64,000 bases of DNA, taken from positions 1 to 64,000 of the forward strand of contig NZ_CAMQSF010000016.1 in assembly GCF_947036865.1 (NCBI RefSeq), in the 5' to 3' direction. Positions within the stretch are counted from its first letter, which is position 1. Each line of letters begins with the position of its first letter. The DNA comes from an uncultured Caulobacter sp. (GTDB taxonomy: Bacteria; Pseudomonadota; Alphaproteobacteria; Caulobacterales; Caulobacteraceae). The translations under genes were made by a program, and so were the position numbers. The notes below the pieces were generated by a model, which was given only the letters and a program-made list of their open reading frames with translations, ran no database searches and was not told where the DNA came from. Shown here piece by piece: positions 8,103-41,486 of the stretch.

Positions 8103-8108
8103 CCTCGT

Positions 8109-8287
8109 TGAGTGTTGGACGCCTCTCGGGAACCGTCCTCGCCCTTCGACAAGCTCAGGGTGAGGACGACTGTCGGCCCCGCAGGCGCAAAATCCTCATC
8201 CTGAGCTTGTCGAAGCATGTCCTCGGGCCGGCGCCGCCGGACCCGCGGGGACGAGGATTTCCATCCGGACTCGCCTCCACGCTCAAC
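8109..8287 (+). repeat. MITE-like repeat, copy A (eroded ends)
   Basis: About 180 bases of non-coding sequence nearly identical over most of its length to copies at 18949-19153 and 41226-41431. It contains nested inverted repeats built on TTCGACAAGCTCAGG and its complement, a GTCCTC...GAGGAC hairpin and a GC-rich GGGCCGGCGCCGCCGGACCC palindrome. The ends retain TTGAGTGTT and CACGCTCAAC but lack the outer GGCTG ends of the other copies. It lies between two convergent genes and abuts the U-tract of the lexA terminator. Confidence 0.85.
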
Positions 8288-8298
8288 ATGGACACCGC

Positions 8299-8334
8299 AA
8301 AAAGAACAAGAGCCCGGCCAGCATGACCGGGCTC
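8299..8334 (-). terminator. Intrinsic terminator of lexA
   Basis: On the minus strand GAGCCCGG pairs with CCGGGCTC around a short loop, followed by TTGTTCTTTTT. It starts 28 bases after the lexA stop. Confidence 0.85.
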
Positions 8335-18923: not shown

Positions 18924-18948
18924 GACCCGCGGATCGATCCAAACGAAA

Positions 18949-19153
18949 GGCTGTTTTAGCCTTGAGTGTTGATGGCCTCGTCAGCGCCGTCCTCGCGCTT
19001 AGACTGGCTCAGGGTGAGGACGACTGCCGGCCCGGCGGGCGCGAAATCCTCATCCCGAGCTTGTCGAAGCATGTCCTCGGGCCGGCGCCGCCGGACCCGA
19101 GGGGACGAGGATTTCCGTCCGGACCAGCCTCCACGCTCAACGTGAATGCAGCC
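18949..19153 (+). mobile_element. MITE-like non-autonomous element, copy B with 8-bp target duplication
   Basis: A 205-bp non-coding element. It starts GGCTGTTTTAGCCTTGAGT and ends with the complement of GGCTGCATTCACGTTGAG, so both ends read GGCTG inwards. An 8-bp direct repeat AAACGAAA flanks it exactly (18941-18948 and 19154-19161). The inside has nested inverted repeats. There is no open frame for a transposase, so it would need one in trans. It lies between convergent aspS and a pentapeptide gene, and its right end meets the minus-strand U-tract of the adjoining terminator. Confidence 0.8.
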
Positions 19154-19160
19154 AAACGAA

Positions 19161-19190
19161 AACCCCTCCGGTCCCGAGATCGGAGGGGTT
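19161..19190. terminator. Bidirectional intrinsic terminator
   Basis: A perfect 10-bp stem AACCCCTCCG/CGGAGGGGTT with a 10-base loop. The minus-strand side is followed by TTTTCGTTT and the plus side by CTTTAT, so it can serve both aspS and the pentapeptide gene ending at 19222. Confidence 0.85.
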
Positions 19191-41217: not shown

Positions 41218-41225
41218 CATGAAAA

Positions 41226-41431
41226 GGCTGTGTTCACGTTGAGCGTGGAGGCTGGTCCGGATGGAAATCCTCGTCTCCCCGGGTGCCGCGGCGCCGGCCC
41301 GAGGACATGCTTCGACAAGCCTGGGATGAGGATTTCGCGCCCGCGGGGCCGACAGTCGTCCTCGCCCTGAGCCTGACGAAGGGCGAGGCCGGGCGCTTAA
41401 GAGGCCATCGGTACTCAAGGCTAGAACAGCC
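41226..41431 (-). mobile_element. MITE-like non-autonomous element, copy C with near-perfect target duplication
   Basis: A 206-bp element in inverse orientation to copy B. Left end GGCTGTGTTCACGTTGAGCG, right end the complement of GGCTGTTCTAGCCTTGAGT, matching the two ends of copy B. The flanks are CATGAAAA (41218-41225) and AATGAAAA (41432-41439), identical in 7 of 8 positions. It lies between the VOC gene and bactofilin, and the right flank is the U-tract of the bactofilin terminator. No coding capacity. Confidence 0.8.
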
Positions 41432-41435
41432 AATG

Positions 41436-41463
41436 AAAAACGCCCCGGATCGCTCCGGGGCGT
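41436..41463 (-). terminator. Intrinsic terminator of the bactofilin gene
   Basis: Minus strand ACGCCCCGGA, GCGA loop, TCCGGGGCGT, then TTTT. It begins 24 bases after the bactofilin stop. Confidence 0.9.
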
Positions 41464-41486
41464 TGTCCTGCTGACGGGCGAAAGCC

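What the first reader, a model, noticed from the sequence alone, without database searches (positions are those of the whole stretch)
18941..19161. Mobile MITE-like element with flush 8-bp target duplications
Copy B (18949-19153, 205 bp) is bounded by GGCTG at both ends reading inwards and by AAACGAAA immediately outside each end. Copy C (41226-41431, 206 bp) has the same two ends and is bounded by CATGAAAA and AATGAAAA. Two unrelated sites with flush 8-bp duplications are strong evidence of transposition by an enzyme supplied in trans. The ends and the 8-bp duplication recall ISL3-type transposition, which is only a guess. No open frame is present, so it is non-autonomous.
Basis: partly seen in the sequence, partly recalled or inferred. 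Interest (0 to 1): 0.8.

Follow-up and report, generated by a model that had tools for sequence, protein, structure and literature searches.

The report
IS1595 mini-transposon seated in terminators
A 205-base non-coding hitchhiker transposon, built to be moved by an IS1595-type transposase, sits again and again in the A/T tract of gene-end transcription terminators and carries a double hairpin inside; it is a new variant of a known kind of element.

Summary
Copy B (18949-19153) has an exact 8-bp duplication, AAACGAAA; copy C (41226-41431) has 7 of 8; a truncated third copy lies at 8108-8290. The ISL3 guess is wrong: in a congener a 1497-bp IS with an IS1595-family transposase (NF033547, 117.9 bits, cut-off 75) has perfect 23-bp ends GGCTGTTTTCACGTTGAGTGTGG and an 8/8 duplication. 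The four ends of B and C match that end at 16-21 of 23; only 6 of 127,954 window 23-mers reach 16, and five are ends of the element. No IS1595 transposase was found in the window's own genome, and its full-length copies are 86-89% like B, so the family is probably old. New features: 15 of 18 end-bounded elements lie flush against a GC-rich stem of 8 bp or more, in the A/T tract of terminator-like hairpins (matched A/T octamers: 41 of 371). B's site holds no element sequence in 23 of 23 related aspS loci. The interior is a double hairpin that also occurs without the ends in many congeners. Verdict: a decayed IS1595-derived MITE family with terminator-seated insertions and probably captured cargo; new variant of a known kind.

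The parts
18941..18948 (.). left copy of the 8-bp target duplication, AAACGAAA
18949..19153 (+). copy B, 205-bp MITE
18949..18971 (+). left terminal inverted repeat of B, 19 of 23 to the IS1595 end of L075
18988..19022 (+). first cargo hairpin of B (arms 18988-19002 and 19008-19022)
19043..19115 (+). second cargo hairpin of B (arms 19043-19056 and 19102-19115)
19070..19102 (+). 33-bp segment with a nested hairpin in the loop of the second hairpin; absent from several other copies (query 122-154 skipped)
19131..19153 (-). right terminal inverted repeat of B, 20 of 23 to the IS1595 end
19154..19161 (.). right copy of the duplication, AAACGAAA
19161..19190 (+). terminator-like hairpin downstream of aspS (arms 19161-19173 and 19178-19190), followed by a T-rich stretch; the insertion lies in its A-tract
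41218..41225 (.). left flank octamer of C, CATGAAAA
41226..41431 (-). copy C, 206-bp MITE in the opposite orientation
41226..41248 (+). terminal inverted repeat of C, 21 of 23 to the IS1595 end
41409..41431 (-). other terminal inverted repeat of C, 16 of 23
41432..41439 (.). right flank octamer of C, AATGAAAA
41439..41464 (+). terminator-like hairpin next to C (arms 41439-41449 and 41454-41464)
8108..8290 (+). truncated third copy; left end lost, right end continues to about 8299, followed by an A-rich stretch and a hairpin at about 8310-8334 (by eye)

Best explanation
The 205-bp sequence is a non-autonomous element (MITE) of the IS1595 family. An IS1595-type transposase, from a full IS of the kind found in a congener, acted on its roughly 23-bp GGCTGT...GTGG ends and inserted it at A/T-rich octamers, with an 8-bp (perhaps sometimes 9-bp) duplication. 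In these GC-rich genomes the insertions that survive lie mostly in the A/T tract beside intrinsic-terminator hairpins. Since the octamer is duplicated, the hairpin keeps a tract beside it, so the insertion should cost little. Between the ends lies a double hairpin (two inverted palindromes around CCTTCGACAAGCTCAGG, the second with a nested hairpin), which also occurs without the ends in many congeners and was most likely captured as cargo. In this genome the family looks old and probably no longer moves. Shown: ends, duplications, element-free orthologous sites, an IS with the same ends, hairpin adjacency, hairpins outside the element. Inferred: transposition in trans, low cost, direction of capture, present immobility.
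For: IS L075 in a congener: perfect 23-bp ends, TAAGTTTT on both sides, transposase over the curated IS1595 cut-offs (NF033547 117.9 against 75; PF12762 36.8 against 27). Ends of B and C match at 19, 20, 21 and 16 of 23; 6 of 127,954 window 23-mers reach 16, five of them ends of the element. A second IS (L110, 62% identical transposase): 3937 bp, ends TCCTGTATTCACGTTGAGTGTTGG, duplication AAGAAAAA 8/8, flush with a 9-bp stem. Plasmid IS1595 elements have ends GGCTTTGTTCGCGTTATG (L215) and GGCTCAATTCGCATTAGC (L216) with 8/8 A/T-rich duplications. No element sequence at B's site in 23 of 23 relatives; single A-tract in those read; C's site empty with one tract in L168. 15 of 18 elements flush with a stem of 8 bp or more, against 41 of 371 A/T octamers (17 of 189 intergenic), 32 of 144 and 12 of 75 with a stricter tract. 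Loci chosen by end sequence alone: 17 of 28 with hairpin plus T tract outside the end. Hairpin pattern 139 times in this genome, in 37 of 75 congeners, reversed pattern 0; ends at up to 3 mismatches in 11 of 75.
Against: No IS1595 transposase in the own genome, so supply in trans is inferred from a relative. L075 itself is on a 3.5-kb contig of a MAG, binning error not excluded, and is not beside a hairpin. Nine of 18 elements lack a clear 8-bp duplication. L004 and L010 have stems under 8 bp. C's orthologous region in L167 and L169 does not show a clear single tract. RNA folding of C is not clearly better than shuffles (z -1.5, 13 of 200; B z -5.5, 0 of 200). The elements are related, and some congeners share insertions, so the counts are not fully independent.
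Confidence: 0.88

Rival explanations
1. The enzyme only prefers A/T-rich octamers; in GC-rich genomes the harmless intergenic ones are often terminator tracts, and selection removed the rest. Terminators are then a side effect, not a target.
For: IS1595 duplications are A/T-rich elsewhere too: L215 TAAAATAA, L216 TATATCTT, no terminator there by eye. L075 is not beside a hairpin. Mean A/T content of the octamers is 78%.
Against: Intergenic A/T octamers lie beside such stems in only 17 of 189 cases, 12 of 75 with a stricter tract, against 15 of 18 elements (p 1e-11 and 1e-7). These controls come from 58 fetched loci and the window, with a crude ORF mask.
Confidence: 0.4
2. The element belongs to ISL3.
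For: 8-bp duplication and a GGCT start; the ISL3 end is recalled, not looked up.
Against: An IS1595 element has the same 23-bp ends. ISL3 transposases were not searched for in the genome.
Confidence: 0.03
3. The hairpins are the active unit (REPIN moved by a RAYT transposase) and the outer ends are a passenger.
For: Hairpins occur as inverted pairs and in high copy without ends.
Against: RAYT (PF01797) genes in 5 of 26 hairpin-rich and 17 of 49 hairpin-poor congeners, none in the own genome; no hairpin in 30 fetched RAYT loci of 33 matches; the duplications are flush with the outer ends.
Confidence: 0.04
4. The repeats are the Caulobacter CIR elements of Chen and Shapiro 2003.
For: CIRs are about 110 bp, intergenic, with two hairpin arms and a linker (PMC2229807, passages), much like the interior here.
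Against: CIRs carry a GANTC site in one arm; 0 of 5 full-length copies have one, and 99 cores hold 2 sites. The original paper is not held, so sequences were not compared.
Confidence: 0.06

Closest known systems
IS1595-derived MITE of Haloquadratum walsbyi, ISHwa6 type (PMC3852290, one table passage)
   Same: IS1595 family, 165 bp, 25-bp inverted repeats, 8-bp direct repeat, 7 copies
   Different: archaeal host; the passage says nothing of terminators or a hairpin cargo
IS1595 family insertion sequences (PMC8101967, passages; L075, L110, L215, L216 here)
   Same: 8-bp duplications, GG ends for the related Merlin group, same end pattern
   Different: autonomous; ours has no transposase gene
CIR elements of Caulobacter (PMC2229807, passages)
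   Same: intergenic, two hairpins and a linker
   Different: no GANTC site here; ours has outer inverted repeats and duplications
SPRITE and RUP repeats of Streptococcus pneumoniae (PMC3049150, passages)
   Same: small structured repeats; SPRITE is enriched near 3' ends of genes, RUP is thought to be moved by an IS in trans (PMC2229807)
   Different: SPRITE resembles a terminator itself; ours lies in existing terminators

Membership tests
IS1595-derived MITE | terminal inverted repeats match those of an IS1595 element | tested here: met
   16-21 of 23 to the ends of L075
IS1595-derived MITE | 8-bp target duplication | tested here: met
   B 8/8, C 7/8; 9 of 18 elements with 7 or 8 of 8, 9 of 18 with fewer
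IS1595-derived MITE | matching IS encodes an IS1595-family transposase | tested here: met
   NF033547 and PF12762 above cut-off, in a congener
IS1595-derived MITE | transposase present in the same genome | tested here: not met
   0 PF12762 matches and 0 P0001 matches in G000; draft of 95 contigs; not a strict requirement for a decayed family
IS1595-derived MITE | moved in trans by that transposase | not testable with these tools
   needs a transposition assay
ISL3 derivative | ends match an ISL3 element | not tested
   no ISL3 search was made; the ends match IS1595
CIR | GANTC site in one arm | tested here: not met
   0 of 5 full-length copies; 2 sites in 99 cores
CIR | sequence match to CIR1-CIR4 | not tested
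   paper not held
REPIN / RAYT (interior) | inverted pair of palindromes | tested here: met
   99 distinct H1-H2 pairs extracted; opposed pattern hits a few tens of bases apart
REPIN / RAYT (interior) | linked to a RAYT gene | tested here: not met
   5 of 26 hairpin-rich against 17 of 49 hairpin-poor genomes; none near 30 RAYT loci

The most novel reading that the evidence does not exclude
A lineage of IS1595-type transposases in this genus and family targets the tract of intrinsic terminators, and its 8-bp duplication re-creates that tract, so that insertions leave the terminator working. It moves exchangeable cargo between the same ends (a genome-resident double hairpin, near ends-only dwarfs, an integron-cassette-like gene in L117) and so spreads new 3'-end structures at almost no cost.
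Probability: 0.4. Interest if true: 0.65.

Novelty: new variant of a known kind. Interest (0 to 1): 0.45.

Why it matters
It gives a mobile-element origin to some intergenic hairpin repeats of these bacteria and names the transposase family whose ends they bear. A transposon that lands in a terminator tract and duplicates it would be a natural safe-harbour strategy, testable with one helper plasmid. The interior shows how an element can pick up a repeat that the genome already holds in many copies.

Tried and rejected
ISL3: set aside for IS1595. RAYT-driven hairpins: no association. CIR identity: GANTC absent or nearly so. Rfam at gathering cut-offs: 0 matches in the window. tRNA genes: 0 in the window. 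Viral contigs: no relative of the transposase. A draw of 299 genomes for the order: none at E 1e-30; 299 for the family: 2 with a match. Of the 22 PF12762 loci in 61 genomes, only L075 showed such ends, which printed the three best candidates per locus. Of seven plasmid IS1595 loci fetched (of 64 records), L215 and L216 gave clear ends; L212 (ISAma5) has GGCTATGTTC ends and, by eye, TTTAAAAA on both sides; L211, L213, L214 and L217 gave nothing convincing. Literature: ten searches of an open-licence library; in the listings and passages seen I found no paper on IS1595 elements in terminators or on this hairpin sequence; subscription papers are not covered.

Limits: the 18-element list depends on mismatch thresholds. 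Own copy L005 (C1:74638), by eye beside a terminator and with 6 of 8 flank bases alike, fell outside it, as did L083, L101 and L103, where one end is degenerate. Some congeners share insertions (L126/L132, L128/L138 have the same flanks), so the loci are not all independent; there 30 loci of 36 hits were given, and L113 and L120 were mis-positioned by the script and left out. In one search locus L164 was read in the wrong orientation (one of the three misses in 20 of 23); one search has it right. The first strict octamer control (0 of 79) came from element loci with their centres masked; searches are the fairer ones. The GANTC shortfall in the cores (2 against 33 by composition) is not independent evidence, since the cores are related. 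Hairpin counts per genome were copied by hand into.

Full report
What is there. The window is contig C16:1-64000 of a 4.25-Mb genome in 95 contigs. Copies B and C are as described, with flank matches of 8/8 and 7/8. A third copy at 8108-8290 has lost its left end. BLAST gives 55 pieces in the genome: five end-to-end copies (B itself and four at 86-89% identity to it), truncated ones, and many that match only the interior. Pairing of ends by script found 11 end-bounded copies in this genome, one of them 77 bp long and nearly ends only (L035), and 7 in congeners, one of these the autonomous IS. Copy B lies between aspS (PF00152) and a convergent pentapeptide-repeat gene, copy C between a glyoxalase-like gene and a convergent bactofilin gene.

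The partner. PF12762 in 61 congeneric genomes, the own one included, gave 22 loci in 18 genomes, none in the own genome. A search for inverted ends and flank repeats around them singled out L075: 1497 bp, GGCTGTTTTCACGTTGAGTGTGG at both ends, TAAGTTTT on both sides. Its 320-aa transposase is over the curated cut-offs for IS1595. It lies on a 3.5-kb contig of a MAG. A relative with a 62% identical transposase (L110) sits in a 3937-bp element with ends TCCTGTATTCACGTTGAGTGTTGG and AAGAAAAA on both sides, beside a 9-bp stem. In 299 genomes of the family only these two transposases matched at 1e-10. IS1595 elements on plasmids of Burkholderia glumae and Octadecabacter arcticus have ends of the same pattern and 8/8 A/T-rich duplications. 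The ends of B and C match that of L075 at 16 to 21 of 23; six of 127,954 window 23-mers reach 16, five of them ends of the element. Published descriptions agree: IS1595 members usually have 8-bp duplications, the related Merlin elements GG ends (PMC8101967, passages), and an IS1595 MITE of 165 bp with an 8-bp DR is on record (PMC3852290, one passage).

The target. None of 23 related aspS loci carries element sequence in the 420 bases examined; 20 of 23 show a stem with a flush A/T-rich octamer there (one miss was read in the wrong orientation). In those read out the A-tract stands once, for instance CAAAGAAAAGCCCTCCGG in the congener with the most similar aspS (96%) and CACGAAAAAGCCCTCCGG in another. 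Copy C's site is empty in L168, with one CATGAAAGCAAAACGCCCC; L167 has neither element nor clear terminator, and L169 has other sequence there.

Terminators. In 15 of 18 end-bounded elements (9 of 11 own) the joined empty site has a stem of 8 bp or more, at least 60% G+C, flush with the octamer; random positions give 155 of 6720. With stems of 6 bp or more it is 17 of 18, but 852 of 4860 random positions then qualify too. The fairest control is octamers with 7 or more A/T, mostly one base: 41 of 371, or 17 of 189 intergenic; with 6 or more of one base 32 of 144, or 12 of 75 intergenic (p from 6e-7 to 1e-11). Loci picked only for holding the end sequence show the same: 17 of 28 have a stem of 8 bp or more and a T tract outside the end, six more an A tract there, five neither with a stem. 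TTTTCTTT recurs as the flank octamer. Whether the enzyme seeks terminators, or only A/T tracts with selection doing the rest, is open: the two plasmid IS1595 elements are not beside terminators by eye, nor is L075, whereas L110 is.

The interior. Two inverted hairpins, the second with a nested hairpin at 19070-19102. Over 128 distinct hairpins from the fetched loci, stem positions 1, 7, 8 and 9 pair well above shuffles while changing sequence; part of this is the difference between the two hairpin types. The hairpin pattern occurs 139 times in this genome and in 37 of 75 congeneric genomes, up to 242 times, and 0 times read backwards; the congener with the most similar aspS has none. Ends at up to 3 mismatches occur in 11 of 75, so the hairpins exist apart from the ends and were most likely captured, though diverged ends are missed by that pattern and loss of ends from old copies may contribute. 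RAYT genes do not go with them. As RNA, copy B folds far better than shuffles (z -5.5), copy C barely (z -1.5). A congener holds a 425-bp element with similar ends, TTTCTTTT on both sides by eye, and an integron-cassette-like gene inside (L117), which suggests that cargo is exchangeable.

Age. The other four full-length copies differ from B by 11-14%, half of the 18 elements lack a clear duplication, and no IS1595 transposase was found in this draft genome. 'Mobile' should be read as 'was mobile'.

Judgement. It works like, and by its ends and duplications is, an IS1595-derived MITE. The kind is known, so it is a new variant rather than a new kind. What lifts it above routine is the terminator seat, the element-free sites that show it, and the interior that the genome holds on its own.

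Noticed in passing
L117, about 1100-1523 (G281): A 425-bp element with similar ends, TTTCTTTT on both sides by eye, in the T tract of a terminator, holds a 108-aa frame matching an integron cassette protein (PF18287, 66.7 bits).
   Followed up: partly
L083 and L103: One end of the element seems replaced by a copy of the opposite flank (19-21 bp repeated on both sides), perhaps by conversion.
   Followed up: no
L080, L081, L084, L099: Different nested hairpins sit at the same place in the loop of the second hairpin.
   Followed up: no
own genome and congeners: The TTCGACAAGCTCAGG hairpin is patchy: 139 copies here, 0 in the congener with the most similar aspS, 242 in another; its way of spreading is unknown.
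   Followed up: partly
L110, 715-4651: The IS1595 element there is 3937 bp and carries further frames (168, 132 and 110 aa) with no Pfam match at 0.01.
   Followed up: partly
L124 (G281): One end next to a terminator T tract with a possible partner 990 bp away; the other end is too diverged to be sure.
   Followed up: no
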